Part shown: positions 11,804 to 18,490 of the stretch, one piece after another
Layout: every line of letters starts with the position of its first letter
How positions within the stretch are numbered: the first letter of the stretch is position 1
NCBI RefSeq assembly: GCF_001403795.1
Contig: NZ_CXSU01000005.1
Coordinates: 249,244-313,243 of the forward strand
Length of the DNA: 64,000 bases
Direction of reading: 5' to 3'
DNA from: Jannaschia donghaensis
GTDB taxonomy: Bacteria > Pseudomonadota > Alphaproteobacteria > Rhodobacterales > Rhodobacteraceae
Program-made: the position numbers and the translations under genes
The notes under the pieces: model-generated
The model's database searches: none
Told to the model about the DNA's origin: nothing
Seen by the model: the letters and a program-made list of their open reading frames with translations, nothing else

Positions 11804-12507
11804 GCCGCCGCCTCCGCCCGTCGGTCCACCTCGGCCCCGACGACCATGCCCAGAACCGCCGCCGCGATCAGCCCCAGGTTCCACGGCACCCACCACAGCG
11901 ATAGCGCGGCCACCACCGACACGAATGCCGCCGCGACATGCGCCCGGCTTTTCAGCATCGGCCCGACAAGTGCCACGAACGCCAGCGGCATCGCGAAATC
12001 CAGCTGCCAGGCATCGGGCACTTGCGCCCCCAGGACCGCGCCGGCCCAGGTCGCCCCGACCCAAGCGGGGAACACCGGCAGGGCGACGCCGGCGAAATAC
12101 GCGACCTTGTCGGACACGCTCCAACGCGGCTGCGTGTCGAAGGCCGTCTGCGCCAGCGCATAGGTCTGATCCACCAGCAGATAGGCGATCAACCCGCGCT
12201 GCCACAGCGGGGCGGCCCCCAGATGCGGTGCCATGCTGGCCGAATACATCACCATCCGCAGATTCACCGCCAGCGCCGAAAGCACCACGATCGCCGCGGG
12301 CACCCCGTCGACCATCAGTTGCACGGCCGTGAACTGCGACGCGCCCGCAATCACCAGCACCGAAAACGCCATCACCTGATCCAGCGGCAAACCCGCCTCG
12401 ACCCCCAGCACGCCGAACAGCGCGCCGAACGGCACCATGATCACGATGAACGGCAGGCCCTCGGCCACGCCGCGCCGAAACGGCGTTCTGTCGGAAGGGG
12501 GTCTCAT
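11800..12507 (-). CDS. azlC: AzlC family amino acid exporter, large subunit
   Basis: The 235-residue protein has the AzlC fold, with FVIMVPFGALFGVLGVEAGL-type first helix, GASQFTAVQLM near residue 60 and NLRMVMYSASMAPHL near residue 85, the latter being characteristic of the family. It forms the export pore with AzlD. The start at 12507 (MRPPSDRTPFRRGVAEG) is chosen by family length. It is divergent from fdhD with 60 bases between them. Substrate specificity cannot be read from sequence. Confidence 0.9.
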   Translation of the reverse strand: MRPPSDRTPFRRGVAEGLPFIVIMVPFGALFGVLGVEAGLPLDQVMAFSVLVIAGASQFTAVQLMVDGVPAAIVVLSALAVNLRMVMYSASMAPHLGAAPLWQRGLIAYLLVDQTYALAQTAFDTQPRWSVSDKVAYFAGVALPVFPAWVGATWAGAVLGAQVPDAWQLDFAMPLAFVALVGPMLKSRAHVAAAFVSVVAALSLWWVPWNLGLIAAAVLGMVVGAEVDRRAEAAA

Positions 12508-12567
12508 CTTGCATCCGGGGATTGGGGGCGACACGATGGGCCTAGCCCTCGCAACGCCCGGTCTCAA

Positions 12568-13392
12568 GTGTCCACGCTCACGCCGCCCACCCTGCGGGTC
12601 GTTCCCGATCCGACCGACCCGCGTCTCACCCGGCCCGTCACCGGCGTCGACCAGTCGGGGCAGGCCGTCGATCTGCACGTGGTGGAGGAACGTCCGCTGA
12701 CGATCTACCTCAATTCCCGCGAAATCGTGACCGCCATGACCATCGGCGATCACCCGCGCTGGCTGGCGTTGGGGTTCCTTGCCAATCAGGGAATGGTGTC
12801 GGCTGCGGACGAGGTGACGGCCATCGACTACGACGACGAACTGCAAACCGTCGTGGTGCGCACGGCGGTGGAAACCGATCACGAGGCCAAGCTGGCCCGC
12901 GCCACGCGCACCTCCGGCTGCGCGGTCGGCACCGTGTTCGGCGACATGATGGAGGGGCTCGACGGTTTGACCCTGCCGGCCACGCCGCTGCGCGTCTCAG
13001 ACCTGCACGCCCTGTCGAACGCCATCAACCGCACCCCGTCGCTTTATCTTCAGGCGGGCGCGATCCACGGCACCTGCCTGTGCGCAGGCCCCGACCCGAT
13101 TGCCTATTTCGAGGATGTGGGCCGCCACAATGCCGTCGACAAACTGGCCGGCTGGATGCGCGCCACCGGCACCGATGCCGGTGACAAGACCCTTTATACC
13201 ACCGGCCGCCTGACGTCCGAGATGGTCATCAAATGCGCCCTGATGGGCATCCCCTGCCTCGTCTCGCGGTCCGGCTTTACCGCGTGGGGTGTGGAGATCG
13301 CGCGCCAGGTCGGCCTGACGGTAATCGGCCGGATGAAAGGCAACCGCTTCGTCTGCCTGAGCGGAGAGGAGCGGGTCGTATGGGACGGTTGA
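12568..13392 (+). CDS. fdhD: Formate dehydrogenase accessory sulfurtransferase FdhD (variant)
   Basis: The 274-residue protein starts with GTG at 12568, the only fitting start codon after the divergent azlC. FdhD moves sulfur from IscS to bis-MGD so that formate dehydrogenase becomes active. Family blocks are present: RPLTIYLNSREIVTAMTIGD, the glycine-rich GAIHGTCLC loop, YFEDVGRHNAVDKL and YTTGRLTSEMV. The usual CxxC sulfur-relay motif is altered: at residues 117-121 the sequence is GCAVG, so the second cysteine is a glycine. Two other cysteines occur at about residues 170 and 172. It overlaps the next gene by 13 bases and heads a molybdenum cofactor cluster. Confidence 0.88.
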   Translation: MSTLTPPTLRVVPDPTDPRLTRPVTGVDQSGQAVDLHVVEERPLTIYLNSREIVTAMTIGDHPRWLALGFLANQGMVSAADEVTAIDYDDELQTVVVRTAVETDHEAKLARATRTSGCAVGTVFGDMMEGLDGLTLPATPLRVSDLHALSNAINRTPSLYLQAGAIHGTCLCAGPDPIAYFEDVGRHNAVDKLAGWMRATGTDAGDKTLYTTGRLTSEMVIKCALMGIPCLVSRSGFTAWGVEIARQVGLTVIGRMKGNRFVCLSGEERVVWDG

Positions 13393-13979
13393 TCCTGCAG
13401 GCGATCTGCGCCGTGGGCATCCTGCTGGCGGGATACGCCGTCTTCGTGTCGATGACGGCGGCCGTCGTTCTGCAAGGCTCGCCCGCCGAACCTCGGGCCG
13501 ATCCCGGTTTTCCGGACGATTGCCTGCCGGTCGAGGGATGTGGCGTGTCGGTCGATCCGCTCGATCCCGCAACCCGGATCGCCTGGTCCAGGAGCTTGGA
13601 GGGGTGCGGGCTCGCCGTTACCGACGGCACATTCAATCCCACCGCCTATCCGTTCTGGAAACCGCGAAAACTGGCCGAGCAGGACATCTGCCTGTCCACC
13701 GTGGCCGGGATGCTGGGCGACTGGCGCAGCGTCGCTGCATGGATGCGCGCGACAGGCTTCACAGCGGACGGCGGCGTGAGACTCGTTCCGATAGGTTCTG
13801 ATCGGCGCTATCACGTGTCGGGACATTTGATTGGCACCCGTGCGCAGACGGGTCTCCCCCAGATCCGCGGCACCCTGCGCAACCGCGCGCGCGACGAGCA
13901 TCATGGGCCGGTCAAGATGACCGTCTCCCTTGATCCCGACGGCAAGGTGGGCGTGGTGACGCTCCATCCGGTCAGGTGA
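13380..13979 (+). CDS. Exported cysteine-containing protein, first of three tandem paralogues
   Basis: The 199-residue protein has an N-terminal hydrophobic anchor (RLILQAICAVGILLAGYAVF) and a soluble, probably periplasmic domain. No known domain was recognised. Shared features with the gene at 14667 are a C-x5-C pair (DDCLPVEGC here), a LEGCGL cysteine followed about 31 residues later by QDICLS, then GDWRSVAAWMRATGFTADGGVRL, a TGLPQI segment, and a final GPVK-V-LDPDGKV strand. Four cysteines are conserved between these two proteins, suggesting two disulfides. The start overlaps fdhD by 13 bases and the stop overlaps the next gene, so it is co-expressed with the molybdenum genes. Confidence 0.7.
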   Translation: MGRLILQAICAVGILLAGYAVFVSMTAAVVLQGSPAEPRADPGFPDDCLPVEGCGVSVDPLDPATRIAWSRSLEGCGLAVTDGTFNPTAYPFWKPRKLAEQDICLSTVAGMLGDWRSVAAWMRATGFTADGGVRLVPIGSDRRYHVSGHLIGTRAQTGLPQIRGTLRNRARDEHHGPVKMTVSLDPDGKVGVVTLHPVR

Positions 13980-14602
13980 TGATCCGCGCGCTTTGCCTCG
14001 TCTCGTTCTCCATGGCACCGGCCCCCTCCTACGCCGATCTGACCCGCAGCTTGGCCGAGGTGGAGGCCGCGCGAACTCCGGTCGTGACCACCAGCTATGG
14101 CGCGATGCGCGTGACCGATGCCATTGCCCGCACGCATCCCGCGCCGCCCGACAAAACGCTGGACCGGTTGCAAGGCTGCCTGCGCTCCGGTGCCGTGGGG
14201 AACGTCAAGGTCGATCTGGCGGCGTATGATTGGCCGGGCACGCGGGCCGCGCGCGATCACGAGGTCTGCCTGCTGCCGATCTTCGTGGCATTGGGCGATC
14301 GGGCGACCGTGCAGGAATGGGTGCAGGCCGTCATCGCGCGGAAGGCCGACCCCGATTGTCCTGCGGTCTGGAACACCAAGCAACCGGCCCGTTGGGGGCC
14401 CTCCGTCGTCCATGTCTGGCGCAGCCGACTGCCGGTGCCGCTGGCCATCGACGTGTTCGACCGCACCGCCAGCTGGTCCGAAGACATGCCGGCGCCCGTC
14501 CATTCCCTGCTGCGCATCACCTTCGACGACGATGGCTTGCCGCTGGCCGTGAAATACAATGCCTTTACATTCGGCAACCGGTACGGATTGGCGCGCTGTT
14601 GA
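13979..14602 (+). CDS. Exported cysteine-containing protein, second of three tandem paralogues (divergent)
   Basis: The 207-residue protein starts with a signal-peptide-like segment (MIRALCLVSFSMAPAPSYA) and overlaps the previous stop as TGATG. It is the most divergent member. It keeps LQGCLR, a second cysteine in RDHEVCLLPIFVALGD, the ATVQEWVQAV helix and the terminal strand pattern LLRITFDDDGLPLAVKYNAF. It lacks the C-x5-C pair and has instead a DPDC and a C-terminal ARC cysteine. The function is unknown. Its secretion signal and placement suggest the same compartment as its neighbours. Confidence 0.7.
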   Translation: MIRALCLVSFSMAPAPSYADLTRSLAEVEAARTPVVTTSYGAMRVTDAIARTHPAPPDKTLDRLQGCLRSGAVGNVKVDLAAYDWPGTRAARDHEVCLLPIFVALGDRATVQEWVQAVIARKADPDCPAVWNTKQPARWGPSVVHVWRSRLPVPLAIDVFDRTASWSEDMPAPVHSLLRITFDDDGLPLAVKYNAFTFGNRYGLARC

Positions 14603-14666
14603 CGGGAACCCTGGCGGAAACCAAGCGTTAATCCGTCATTCACGAGTTCCTATCTGGGTTTCAACG

Positions 14667-15299
14667 ATGATGTCGCTCCGCTCTGCTGCCGCTGCTGTTC
14701 TGCTCACCCTCGCGGCGGGTCCGTCCGCCTATGCCGATGACCTTGCACCCCTTGGCCCCACGACCGGCGCGATGTTCCATTCGGCGTCTGCCACGCTTCC
14801 GGCGGCGATTTGCGCGACCGATCCCGACTGCGGCTTCGCCATTCCGCCGTTTCCCGACACGATCTCCGTGGCCGCGACCGAAACGCTGGACGGATGCGCG
14901 CTCGACGCGACGGGCGATGGCTGGGCCGATCCGCTCTCCTACGATCTGTGGCGCAAGCGTAGCTTGCAGGACCACGAGACCTGCATCAGTGGCATCTTCG
15001 CCTCGCTCGGCACGTGGCCCGCCATCGCGTCCTGGATGCGCGCCAAGGACTTCGATGCCGACGGCGGCATCCGACTGACGCGGTTTCGCGACGATCCGAC
15101 CGTCGGTTTCGTCGCGGCCCTGACCGGATCGCGCGCACGCACGGGCCTGCCGCAAATCGTGCCGTCCACCCGCGTGTTGCGCAACGATCTGCACAACGGT
15201 CCGCTCCACGTCCACGCCCTGCTGGACCGCAATGGGGCCTTCCTGCGCGTCGTCGTCACCGAAACCCGGCGGCTTTCGGTCGAATCCACGCCGCAATAA
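14667..15299 (+). CDS. Exported cysteine-containing protein, third of three tandem paralogues
   Basis: The 210-residue protein starts with two adjacent ATG codons (14667 or 14670) and a clear signal peptide (SLRSAAAAVLLTLAAGPSAYA). The mature part carries ICATDPDC, LDGCAL, HETCIS, WPAIASWMRAKDFDADGGIRL and ARTGLPQI, closely matching the protein at 13380. All four cysteines of that protein are in equivalent places. It is separated from the second gene by about 65 bases. No family or enzymatic motif was recognised. Confidence 0.72.
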   Translation: MMSLRSAAAAVLLTLAAGPSAYADDLAPLGPTTGAMFHSASATLPAAICATDPDCGFAIPPFPDTISVAATETLDGCALDATGDGWADPLSYDLWRKRSLQDHETCISGIFASLGTWPAIASWMRAKDFDADGGIRLTRFRDDPTVGFVAALTGSRARTGLPQIVPSTRVLRNDLHNGPLHVHALLDRNGAFLRVVVTETRRLSVESTPQ

Positions 15300-15399
15300 C
15301 TCCGTTTTCCCTTGCGGGGGCAGGTCCGGGGACGGACACTGCGGCCATGTCCAGCCACCGCTTGAACCCTTCCCTCGACGCCCGCAGCGGCCCGCCCCG

Positions 15400-15999
15400 A
15401 TGATTCAGCCCCACGGCCTGATCCTCGCCGGTGGGCGGGCGACGCGGATGGGCGGCGGCGACAAGGGACGCCTGCTTCTGGGCAACCGGTCTCTCATCGC
15501 CCGCGTCATCGCCACACTCGCCCCGCAGGTCGACCGCCTGGCGCTCAACGCCAACGGCGACGCGACCCGTTGGTCCGATCTGCGCCTGCCGGTTCTGCCC
15601 GACACCGCGCCAGACCATCCCGGCCCTTTGGCCGGAGTCCTCGCCGGTCTGGACTGGGCCGCTGGCCTTGGCTGTCCGCACATCGTCACCGCCGCGGCCG
15701 ACACCCCGTTCCTGCCGCCCGATCTGGTGCCCCGCCTTCTGGCAGCCGCCGGACCGTCCGGCCTGGCCCTGGCCGCCACGCAGGAGGGCGCGAAGACCTG
15801 GCCGCAGCCCACCTTCGGCCTGTGGCCCACGGCCCTGCGCGACGATCTGCGCGCGGCCCTCGCCACCGGCACCCGCAAGATATTGCACTGGACCGACCGT
15901 CACGACCCCGGCCTTGCGGTCTTTGCGACGACGCCCTGGGACCCGTTCTTCAACGTGAACACCCCCGAAGATCTGGTCCGGGCCGAGGCGATGGCGTGA
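15400..15999 (+). CDS. mobA: Molybdenum cofactor guanylyltransferase MobA
   Basis: The 199-residue enzyme attaches GMP from GTP to molybdopterin to form the guanine dinucleotide cofactor needed by formate dehydrogenases and DMSO-reductase-family enzymes. The N-terminal nucleotide motif LAGGRATRMGGGDKGRLLL is diagnostic. DHPGPLAGVLAGLDWA and AADTPFLPPDLV follow, the aspartate in the latter binding Mg2+. NVNTPEDL ends the protein as in the family. Its stop overlaps a GTG start of mobB (GTGA). Confidence 0.97.
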   Translation: MIQPHGLILAGGRATRMGGGDKGRLLLGNRSLIARVIATLAPQVDRLALNANGDATRWSDLRLPVLPDTAPDHPGPLAGVLAGLDWAAGLGCPHIVTAAADTPFLPPDLVPRLLAAAGPSGLALAATQEGAKTWPQPTFGLWPTALRDDLRAALATGTRKILHWTDRHDPGLAVFATTPWDPFFNVNTPEDLVRAEAMA

Positions 16000-16469
16000 T
16001 CCTGATGGGCATCACCGGCCACAAGAATGCCGGCAAGACGACCCTGACGACCGCCCTGATATCCGAATTATCGGCGCGCGGCCTGACCGTCAGCACCCTC
16101 AAACGCACGCACCACGCAGTCGATCTGGACACCCCCGGCACCGACACGCACCGCCACCGTACCGCCGGCGCGCATCAGGTGATCCTTGCCACCGACCGCC
16201 GCCTGACTGTGATGGAGGAGGTCGCGGCCCCGACATTCGACCACCTGCTGTCGCGCCTGGCCCCCTGCGACGTGGTGCTGGCCGAAGGCTGGAAACACGG
16301 GTCCCATCCCCGGATCGAAGTCTGGCGCCCCGAGACCGGCAAGCCGCCCCTCGCGCGCACCGATCCCACCTTCCGGGCCGTCGCCGCCACCGGCGATCCG
16401 CAGGTGGCGCAGCCGGTCCTCGACCTCAACGACATCGCGGCCATCGCGGATTTCATATGTTCGACCTGA
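15996..16469 (+). CDS. mobB: Molybdopterin-guanine dinucleotide biosynthesis adaptor MobB
   Basis: The 157-residue GTP-binding protein has a P-loop GHKNAGKTTLT at the N-terminus, LKRTHHAVDLDTPGTDTHRHRTAGA after the first strand, and VVLAEGWKHG as the Walker-B-like region. MobB binds GTP and interacts with MobA and MoeA to raise the efficiency of cofactor maturation. GTG at 15996 overlaps the mobA stop; ATG at 16005 would shorten it by three residues. The last 13 bases overlap the next gene. Confidence 0.93.
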   Translation: MILMGITGHKNAGKTTLTTALISELSARGLTVSTLKRTHHAVDLDTPGTDTHRHRTAGAHQVILATDRRLTVMEEVAAPTFDHLLSRLAPCDVVLAEGWKHGSHPRIEVWRPETGKPPLARTDPTFRAVAATGDPQVAQPVLDLNDIAAIADFICST

Positions 16470-18490
16470 TCCTCGTCGCCGATTGGTCGGCCAGCAGCGC
16501 GCGTGGCCCCGCGACACCGAAACCGGACGCGCTGTGGGTCTGCGCCGATCTGCACGGCGACCAAACCGTCGAATACTTCCGCACCCGCGCCGACGCGCTG
16601 GCCTTCATCGACGATTGGCTGGGGCGCGGGCACCGCACGCTTCTGGGGTTCGACTTCGCGATGGGCTGGCCCAGGGGCTTCGCCGAAACGCTGACCGGTC
16701 GGCCAAGCGCCATGGCCGTCTGGGACTGGCTTGCCACGCATATCACCGACGACGCGGCCAACACCAACAACCGTTTTCACGTGGCGGAGCGGATCAACCG
16801 TGCCTTTCCCGGCGTCGGGCCGCTGTGGGGGCGCCCCGCCAGCCACGATCACCCCGATCTGCCCGACAAGGGAACGGCCCGCACCGATCACGGCATCCCC
16901 GACCACCGCACCGTCGAAGGCTATGCGCCATCCGCGCAATCGGCGCTCAAGCTGTTCACCACCGGGTCGGTCGGGTCGCAGGCGTTGATGGGCTGCGCCG
17001 CCCTTCCTGCGCTGCGGGCCCGTCATCCGGATTTGCGGGTCTGGCCACAGGAAACCGGCTTTGCCCTTCCCGACACCGGCAACCTTCTGGTGGAAATCTA
17101 CCCCAGCCTGTTTGAACCCGCCCCCCATCCGATCAAGGACGCGGGGCAGGTCATCGCAACGGCGCAGGCCCTGCGCACCGCATCGCGCGATTGGTTCACC
17201 GCACCGTCCGTCGAAGCCGACGCCGACAGGATCGCGGTCGAAGAGGGGTGGATTCTGGGCGTCCTGCCCCCGTCCTCCTGTTTTGCACTGCCCGCCGGTA
17301 CCGACTGGACGCCGGTGGAGACCGCGCTTGAAACGCTGCGGACATCGTGCCCGGCGACCACGCACACCGAGACTCTGCCCATCGCCGAGGCTGCCAATCG
17401 CATCCTTGCCGCCGATCTTGTCGCCACCCGCTCCAACCCGCCCGCCGCCAACGCCGCCGTCGATGGATGGGCCTTTGCCCACGCCACGCTGCGCCCCGGT
17501 CCGATCCCGGTGCTGCCGGGTCGCGCCGCCGCCGGGGTCCGGTTCGATGGCCGCGTTCCGCCCGGTCACGCCCTGCGCATTCTGACGGGGGCCGAGGTTC
17601 CCGACGGCGCCGATACCGTCGCCTTGCAGGAGGATGCCACGCAGGACGGCACGGCCCTGACGTTGAAGGCCGTCCCCAAGGCCGGCGCGAACACCCGCGC
17701 CATGGGCGAAGACGTCCGCACGGGCACCGCCGTCTTGCCCCAGGGCACCATCCTGCGCCCCACCGACATCGCCGTCGCGATCGCCGCGGGCCACGGCACA
17801 CTGCCGGTGCGCAAACGGCTGCGCGTCGGCGTGCTGTCCACCGGCGACGAAATCACCGCCCCCGGCAGTGCGCATGGCATCCCGGACGTGAACCGTCCGA
17901 TGCTTCTGGCAATGTTGGACGATTGGGGAATGGACGCCGTCGATCTGGGGCACGCGCCCGACGATGCGGCGACACTGACGGCCATGCTCGACGCCGCCGA
18001 GACCCATGCCACTCTGACGTCGGGCGGGGCCAGTACGGGGGACGAGGATCATCTGTCCCGCCTGCTGCGCGACAGGGGCGGCGTCCACCACTGGCGCATC
18101 GCGATCAAGCCCGGTCGGCCGCTTGTGCTGGGCCACTGGAACGGCGTGCCGCTGTTCGGTCTGCCGGGCAATCCGGTCGCGGCATTCACCTGCGCCACCC
18201 TCTTTGCGCGTCCAGCCCTGCTTCAGATGGCGGGGGCGGGGTGGCGTGTGCCCGACACATTGGTCGTCCCGGCTGCCTTTTCCAAACGCAAGAAGGCGGG
18301 TCGAACGGAAGTCCTGCGCGCCCGTCTGCGCGGCGGCCAGGCAGAGGTCTTTCGCTCCGAAGGGTCGGGCCTCGTCTCGGGGCTGTCCTGGGCCGAGGGG
18401 TTCGTGATGCTGGACGAGGGTGCTGCCCAAATCGAACCGGGCGCGCCGGTCCGCTACCTCCCGTTCACAAGCCTCGGCCTCAAAGGTTAA
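16457..18490 (+). CDS. moeA: Fusion of an uncharacterised N-terminal domain with MoeA (molybdenum insertase)
   Basis: The protein has 677 residues, whereas MoeA alone has about 400. Residues from about 275 to the end match MoeA: IAEAANRILAADLVA, AVDGWAF, ILTGAEVPDGADTV, VGVLSTGDEI, the TSGGASTGDEDHL loop and FGLPGNPVAAF. MoeA inserts molybdate into adenylylated molybdopterin. The first ~275 residues are a separate domain starting LILVADWSASSARGP with a FDFAMGWPRGF segment. It has the general look of DUF429-type RNase H-fold proteins, but I cannot name it securely. It is the last gene of the cluster and overlaps mobB by 13 bases. Confidence 0.88.
   Translation: MFDLILVADWSASSARGPATPKPDALWVCADLHGDQTVEYFRTRADALAFIDDWLGRGHRTLLGFDFAMGWPRGFAETLTGRPSAMAVWDWLATHITDDAANTNNRFHVAERINRAFPGVGPLWGRPASHDHPDLPDKGTARTDHGIPDHRTVEGYAPSAQSALKLFTTGSVGSQALMGCAALPALRARHPDLRVWPQETGFALPDTGNLLVEIYPSLFEPAPHPIKDAGQVIATAQALRTASRDWFTAPSVEADADRIAVEEGWILGVLPPSSCFALPAGTDWTPVETALETLRTSCPATTHTETLPIAEAANRILAADLVATRSNPPAANAAVDGWAFAHATLRPGPIPVLPGRAAAGVRFDGRVPPGHALRILTGAEVPDGADTVALQEDATQDGTALTLKAVPKAGANTRAMGEDVRTGTAVLPQGTILRPTDIAVAIAAGHGTLPVRKRLRVGVLSTGDEITAPGSAHGIPDVNRPMLLAMLDDWGMDAVDLGHAPDDAATLTAMLDAAETHATLTSGGASTGDEDHLSRLLRDRGGVHHWRIAIKPGRPLVLGHWNGVPLFGLPGNPVAAFTCATLFARPALLQMAGAGWRVPDTLVVPAAFSKRKKAGRTEVLRARLRGGQAEVFRSEGSGLVSGLSWAEGFVMLDEGAAQIEPGAPVRYLPFTSLGLKG

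What the first reader, a model, noticed from the sequence alone, without database searches (positions are those of the whole stretch)
13380..15299. Three tandem genes for related exported cysteine proteins inside a molybdenum cofactor cluster
The proteins at 13380 (199 aa), 13979 (207 aa) and 14667 (210 aa) share a common pattern: N-terminal export signal, a (L/D)xGC cysteine, a second cysteine about 30 residues on, a W-helix and a C-terminal GP...D(D/P)(D/N)G strand. The first and third share ARxQTGLPQI-type and DGGxRL segments and four cysteines at equivalent spacing. They are wedged between fdhD and mobA with overlapping or close starts, so they are co-expressed with formate dehydrogenase/bis-MGD maturation. 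I know no described function. They could be periplasmic factors for a molybdoenzyme, or a species-specific duplication.
Basis: partly seen in the sequence, partly recalled or inferred. Interest (0 to 1): 0.72.

Follow-up and report, generated by a model that had tools for sequence, protein, structure and literature searches.

The report
Exported cysteine-protein trio beside molybdenum genes
Three related, probably exported bacterial proteins of an unnamed family sit between two molybdenum-cofactor genes, but most relatives that keep those cofactor genes lack them, so they look like optional passengers rather than parts of the molybdenum machinery.

Summary
The three ORFs are real and related: A (13380-13979), B (13979-14602), C (14667-15299). 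A and C are clear paralogues (36%, E 3e-32). B shares a core of about 54 residues with C (E 3e-7). No Pfam or PHROG family matches them; NCBIfam gives one chance-level hit for B. The core has two cysteines 26-31 positions apart and a tryptophan 17 after the second, in 25 of 26 sequences read. It is sparse elsewhere in the bacterial family and occurs in Rhizobium.

The genus is Jannaschia. Of 20 genomes, 6 carry ten copies, all between fdhD and mobA. The other 14 keep fdhD and mobA, and all 20 have a formate dehydrogenase alpha subunit. Outside the genus, 0 of 14 loci lie near fdhD, mobA, mobB or moeA. In 7 of 28 other genera measured, the fdhD-mobA gap holds other genes, never this family. The copies predate the species split.

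Best reading: fast-evolving, probably exported, disulphide-stabilised accessory proteins, translated as passengers of a cofactor operon. A molybdenum role is unlikely. Biochemical function is inferred only (envelope protein binding, possibly inhibitor- or immunity-like). Both structure models were weak and gave no significant fold match.

The parts
12568..13392 (+). fdhD (start GTG 12568 is my choice); its last codons contain the start codon of gene A
   Evidence: Pfam FdhD-NarQ E 1.7e-69; sequence
13380..13979 (+). Gene A, 199 aa, N-terminal signal anchor or signal peptide (inferred); overlaps the fdhD end
13539..13775 (+). Core C-C-W domain of A
   Evidence: core profile match in own genome, converted to window coordinates
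13979..14602 (+). Gene B, 207 aa, signal-peptide-like N-terminus (inferred); TGATG overlap with the end of A
14114..14353 (+). Core C-C-W domain of B
   Evidence: converted to window coordinates
14667..15299 (+). Gene C, 210 aa, signal-peptide-like N-terminus (inferred); 64 nt after B
14829..15068 (+). Core C-C-W domain of C
   Evidence: converted to window coordinates
15400..15999 (+). mobA, 100 nt after C
   Evidence: Pfam NTP_transf_3 E 9.5e-35
16005..16469 (+). mobB
   Evidence: Pfam MobB E 1.2e-40
16457..18490 (+). moeA with an extra N-terminal part of about 285 aa
   Evidence: MoeA_N, MoCF_biosynth and MoeA_C match within residues 286-670 only

Best explanation
The three genes encode fast-evolving, exported or membrane-anchored, disulphide-stabilised proteins of an unnamed family that is patchy in the bacterial family of this genome and also occurs in Rhizobium. 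In Jannaschia they occupy a permissive gap between fdhD and mobA and are read as passengers of that operon, by start-codon overlap or close spacing. They are not needed for molybdenum-cofactor insertion or formate dehydrogenase. Shown: relationship, distribution, gap occupancy, age of the duplications. Inferred: export, disulphides, co-transcription and co-translation, dispensability. Most likely biochemical role (inference, weak): a non-catalytic periplasmic protein-binding domain, two helices plus an antiparallel sheet held by a conserved disulphide.
For: Ten copies in 6 of 20 Jannaschia genomes, all between fdhD and mobA. fdhD and mobA are retained together in 20 of 20 and Fdh-alpha in 20 of 20. 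The family is found at E below 1e-6 in 13 of 392 other genera sampled (six of the 13 had rows in the model, seven had not), with 0 of 14 loci near fdhD, mobA, mobB or moeA. The fdhD-mobA gap is 497-1203 nt, with other ORFs, in 7 of 28 other genera measured, and in Jannaschia G308 and G311 it holds other cargo; the core profile finds no member in any of these. Orthologue identity is 43-65% while FdhD is 82-87% and MobA 79-91%; dN/dS is about 0.2-0.5 against about 0.12-0.16 for fdhD. C1, C2 and W are invariant in 25 of 25 rows of the core alignment, but the later eight rows were picked with that pattern in mind. Of the 17 sequences, 15 have an even number of cysteines outside hydrophobic stretches by my reading; L070 has an odd one and L066 depends on its uncertain start. 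Both AF2 models end in two adjacent helices followed by four strands, C with a short helix between strands 2 and 3.
Against: All ten Jannaschia copies are at the molybdenum locus and three subfamilies have been kept there, which could mean a selected link; shared ancestry explains it equally well. Gap cargo in other genera is not random: four of seven resemble one another (YcxB-like) and two more resemble each other, so some cargo may be selected at this place. dS is near or above 1, so rate ratios are rough. The structure models are poor (mean pLDDT 61.6 and 40.5) with no significant fold match. No experiment bears on function or export.
Confidence: 0.55

Rival explanations
1. Periplasmic maturation or assembly factors for a molybdoenzyme, lineage-specific, co-expressed with fdhD and mobA.
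For: 10 of 10 Jannaschia copies lie between fdhD and mobA; the first cargo gene starts inside fdhD in 4 of 6 genomes.
Against: 14 of 20 genomes keep fdhD, mobA and Fdh-alpha without any member; 0 of 14 loci outside the genus are near these genes; the two Fdh-alpha-type genes of this genome are on other contigs.
Confidence: 0.12
2. Periplasmic immunity or inhibitor proteins (against contact-dependent or secreted toxins, or lytic enzymes), kept as a small array of diverged paralogues without a cognate toxin beside them.
For: Patchy distribution, tandem diverged paralogues, export-like N-termini, conserved cysteine pair, fast evolution, and copies lying in an unrelated operon elsewhere. A weak Foldseek resemblance to phage SmpA/OmlA-type lipoproteins (E 0.17 and 1.1, not significant).
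Against: No toxin or secretion gene was identified beside the copies, but most neighbours outside the genus were listed as ORFs only, without function. No match to PADLOC beyond one chance-level hit (E 0.02) or to Pfam families.
Confidence: 0.2
3. Thiol-redox proteins of the periplasm (electron transfer or disulphide exchange) using the conserved cysteine pair.
For: Conserved cysteines in all 25 rows of the core alignment.
Against: The pair is 26-31 positions apart, not CxxC; the extra CX5C or CX6C pair of A and C is absent from B and from most relatives; no Pfam match to a redox family.
Confidence: 0.08

Closest known systems
Unnamed hypothetical proteins of Rhizobium plasmids (e.g. WP_020047378.1, R. 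leguminosarum pRle248e)
   Same: Share the C-C-W core (P0012 and P0014 read). Four of five plasmid records match the member L067 at 36-38% identity over 65% of the query; the fifth covers 31%.
   Different: About 350 aa with several hydrophobic N-terminal segments; no molybdenum gene is annotated in the three regions of about 12 kb that I read.
SmpA/OmlA (BamE) and BLIP-type exported binding domains (fold recalled as two helices plus an antiparallel sheet)
   Same: Similar order of elements in a weak model; export; small size.
   Different: No sequence match. In BFVD two phage SmpA/OmlA-type proteins at E 0.17 and 1.1, below an uncharacterised phage protein at E 0.023; none among the 50 PDB matches listed of 605.
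NarJ/TorD/DmsD redox enzyme maturation proteins (recalled; of PMC4464133 I saw only the search listing with the start of its abstract)
   Same: Small accessory proteins sometimes encoded beside molybdenum genes.
   Different: Those are cytoplasmic and all-helical as I recall; these carry export-like N-termini and match no such family.

Membership tests
Molybdoenzyme maturation factors (REMPs and similar) | Sequence match to a known maturation family | tested here: not met
   0 Pfam families for A, B and C; NCBIfam 0 for A and C and one chance-level hit (E 0.14) for B
Molybdoenzyme maturation factors (REMPs and similar) | Co-occurrence with the enzyme or cofactor genes | tested here: not met
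   Absent from 14 of 20 genomes that have fdhD, mobA and Fdh-alpha; 0 of 14 outside loci linked
Molybdoenzyme maturation factors (REMPs and similar) | Needed for activity of a molybdoenzyme | not testable with these tools
   Needs a deletion mutant
The unnamed C-C-W family described here | C - 25 to 30 residues - C - 16 residues - W, plus profile match | tested here: met
   A, B and C; 25 of 25 rows of the core alignment; L097, counted as a member, has phenylalanine in place of the tryptophan (my reading)
The unnamed C-C-W family described here | N-terminal export signal or membrane anchor | tested here: inconclusive
   Hydrophobic N-terminus in A, B and C; no signal-peptide predictor or experiment
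SmpA/OmlA or BLIP fold | Significant structural match | tested here: not met
   No match at E <= 0.001 in PDB or BFVD, from a model of mean pLDDT 61.6, so a weak test
Periplasmic immunity or inhibitor proteins | Binds and neutralises a toxin or enzyme | not testable with these tools
   Needs biochemistry

The most novel reading that the evidence does not exclude
An undescribed family of exported disulphide-locked binding proteins, working as inhibitors or immunity factors, that spreads by lodging in tight gaps of housekeeping operons (fdhD-mobA in Jannaschia; between a glutamine-synthetase-like and an FAD-oxidoreductase gene in two other genera) and can borrow the upstream gene's last codons as its start.
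Probability: 0.12. Interest if true: 0.6.

Novelty: new member of a known kind. Interest (0 to 1): 0.3.

Why it matters
It adds an unnamed, lineage-restricted family of probably exported proteins with a clear sequence signature. It also shows that position inside a cofactor operon is poor evidence of a cofactor role: the fdhD-mobA gap takes other genes in several genera. That helps annotators avoid a false 'molybdenum factor' label.

Tried and rejected
Single-sequence scan of genome contigs with C: 62 pattern hits, none confirmed. With the B-type alignment: 295 pattern hits, 2 loci confirmed, which named the genus. Viral contigs with the B-type alignment: 82 pattern hits, none confirmed. Phage collection with B: no match. 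Plasmids with C: no match.

Class-wide search with the 25-row core: of 385 genomes (some of the same family) only this one and one weak hit, G642, E 8e-4, not examined. At most 14 candidates per genome were scored there and, so sensitivity is limited.

Rows dropped as chance: G061 and G237 and G022, whose frames read as unrelated. From: L069, L071, L073 and L074, because their frames lack the C-C-W pattern or read as unrelated proteins. Using the pattern to drop rows, and to pick eight later rows, makes its invariance partly a matter of selection. From the 11 genomes with hits above E 1e-6 (G213, G246, G188, G404, G078, G461, G267, G053, G274, G408, G009) were not examined; G213 has two adjoining hits in different frames and may be a true member. 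L097 (G459) was left out of the core because phenylalanine stands where the tryptophan should be; it still counts among the 13 genera. Regions L023, L024, L083 and L086 were fetched and not used further, apart from the null test.

Species tree from FdhD plus MobA: too poorly resolved to count gains and losses (10 of 17 inner branches open). Fold searches: nothing significant. PDB sequence searches with four profiles and one protein: nothing better than E 0.4. Repeats bracketing the genes: only short, imperfect ones. Paper searches: 'Jannaschia' with 'formate dehydrogenase' 2 papers; 'fdhD, mobA, intergenic, Rhodobacter' 0; 'fdhD, mobA, operon' 12; 'orphan immunity' with three T6SS or export terms 2. 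I saw listings and abstract starts only and opened no paper, so I say only that nothing in these four listings names such a family.

I had counted seven of the 13 genera as in the model; it is six genera (seven rows).

Full report
Observation. A (199 aa) starts inside the last codons of fdhD: the end of the FdhD frame contains ATGGGACGG, read in another frame as MGR. B (207 aa) starts on the last base of the A stop codon (TGATG). C (210 aa) follows after 64 nt and mobA after another 100 nt. No terminator-like or sigma-70-like site was found in 12400-15600 on either strand. All three have the high third-position G+C of their neighbours (0.78, 0.83 and 0.81, against 0.85 for fdhD), which supports that they are coding.

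Relationship. A and C are paralogues (36% over 153 aa, E 3e-32). B is more distant: E 3e-7 to C and 1e-3 to A. In shuffle controls no shuffle reached the real score for any pair (0 of 499, 498 and 498 that aligned, of 500 made), but A-B has a thin margin, 26.2 against a best shuffle of 25.8 bits. Profile comparison of the B-type with the A/C-type alignment gives E 3.3e-7 over 54 columns. A search of the own genome with C at E <= 1 finds only these three. No Pfam or PHROG family matches them; NCBIfam gives only a chance-level hit for B, E 0.14.

Distribution in the genus. Contig length and sequence identify two relatives as Jannaschia marina SHC163 (G298) and J. helgolandensis DSM 14858 (G297); the window belongs to the same genus in the search tool's grouping. 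Of 20 genomes of the genus, this one included, 6 have members: G000 (A, B, C), G298 (B, C), G302 (A), G307 (B), G297 (B) and G312 (two diverged copies). All ten copies lie between fdhD and mobA. In the 14 others the gap is 0-35 nt in eight, 89-275 nt in four (G295, G296, G305, G306), and filled with other cargo in two: G311 an IS110-family transposase on the opposite strand, and G308 two ORFs that weakly match each other (27%, E 5.7e-6) but not this family. In 4 of the 6 genomes (G000, G298, G297, G312) the first cargo gene, as I read its start, uses the ATG inside the fdhD end, whichever subfamily it is.

Age. In the gene tree A of this genome groups with A of G302 (90/92), C with C of G298 (95/95), and the four B copies together (91/99); the two G312 copies sit on long, unsure branches. 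The duplications therefore predate these species, with later losses or exchange; the species tree is too unresolved to say which. Orthologues are 43-65% identical where FdhD is 82-87% and MobA 79-91%; dN/dS is roughly 0.2-0.5 against about 0.12-0.16 for fdhD, with dS near or above 1. The genes appear to be under purifying selection but evolve fast.

Link to molybdenum. Each of the 20 genomes has an Fdh-alpha over the NCBIfam cut-off, and the two Fdh-alpha-type matches of this genome are on other contigs than the window. So 14 of 14 genomes without the family still have fdhD, mobA and Fdh-alpha. Outside the genus a B-type profile and then a 17-row core profile were run over 394 genomes of the family, 392 other genera. 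The core profile gave hits at E <= 0.01 in 24 other genera, 13 of them below 1e-6; six of the 13 had rows in the model and seven had not. Of the 14 loci fetched from these 13, 0 have fdhD, mobA, mobB or moeA within about 5 kb; the only locus that scored was the Jannaschia control. Two genera share a context, with the gene lying between a glutamine-synthetase-like gene and an FAD-dependent oxidoreductase gene. Rhizobium plasmids carry relatives of about 350 aa with hydrophobic N-terminal segments. In 384 further genomes of the class only one weak hit appeared.

The gap. One search found fdhD in 81 of 120 genomes of the family, this one included. I examined the 29 best-scoring others, which are the loci that the tool returned: mobA was within the fetched flank in 28, and the gap was 497-1203 nt in 7. 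The ORFs there are not of this family: four resemble one another, three of them with sub-threshold YcxB matches and one with a sub-threshold PH match; two small membrane proteins resemble each other (41%); one is deaminase-like, just under Pfam's cut-off. The core profile found no member in the 29 loci nor in the 14 member-less Jannaschia loci (best E 0.42 there), while finding all 7 copies of the other five genomes, which are in the model. The fdhD-mobA gap thus admits several kinds of gene, some of them repeatedly.

Anatomy. In the 25 rows of the core alignment the two cysteines and the tryptophan are invariant, the second cysteine and the tryptophan 17 positions apart and the two cysteines 26-31. 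This is partly selection: eight rows were picked with the pattern, and a 26th relative, L097, has phenylalanine instead of the tryptophan. Extra cysteines tend to come in pairs: CX5C upstream in A and C, C127 and C207 in B, both kinds in the G312 copy P0011, and extra pairs in the outside members L095, L096 and L098; L070 has one odd cysteine. This suggests structural disulphides and hence export, which I infer. AF2 with three-sequence alignments gave mean pLDDT 61.6 for C and 40.5 for B; both end in two adjacent helices followed by four strands. Foldseek found nothing significant in PDB (best E 0.75) or BFVD (best E 0.023, an uncharacterised phage protein at 22.7 A rmsd); two phage SmpA/OmlA-type lipoproteins appear at E 0.17 and 1.1, which is only a lead.

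Conclusion. The molybdenum reading is unlikely and the species-specific duplication reading is not borne out. I commit to exported, disulphide-stabilised accessory proteins carried as passengers in a permissive operon gap, with protein binding in the envelope as the most likely, still untested, activity.

Noticed in passing
window 16457-18490: The moeA gene encodes 677 aa; Pfam matches MoeA domains only from residue 286 on, so about 285 N-terminal residues are unassigned.
   Followed up: no
L048:1862-3207 (Jannaschia G308): The same fdhD-mobA gap holds two other ORFs (206 and 243 aa) that weakly match each other (27%, E 5.7e-6) and no Pfam family above cut-off: perhaps another tandem paralogue pair.
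   Followed up: partly
L139, L142, L155, L157, L158, L160, L161: In 7 of 28 other genera measured the fdhD-mobA gap holds other ORFs: four that resemble one another (three with sub-threshold YcxB matches), two small membrane proteins that resemble each other, and one deaminase-like protein.
   Followed up: partly
L080:5492-6013 and L125:4953-5576: In two other genera a family member sits between a glutamine-synthetase-like gene and an FAD-dependent oxidoreductase gene, in a shared gene order.
   Followed up: partly
L045 (G311) and L046 (G310): A second, distant FdhD (30-33% identity), with an Fdh-alpha-like match within about 1 kb in both genomes.
   Followed up: no
L047, L054, L056, L058: Four Jannaschia genomes without the family have fdhD-mobA gaps of 253, 160, 275 and 89 nt that could be decayed cargo. 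Three show no ORF of 60 aa or more, L056 one of 87 aa; the core profile finds nothing in them.
   Followed up: partly
L102 and L116 (G213): Two adjoining weak core matches in different frames (E 1.6e-5 and 8e-5), perhaps one family member split by a frame change.
   Followed up: no
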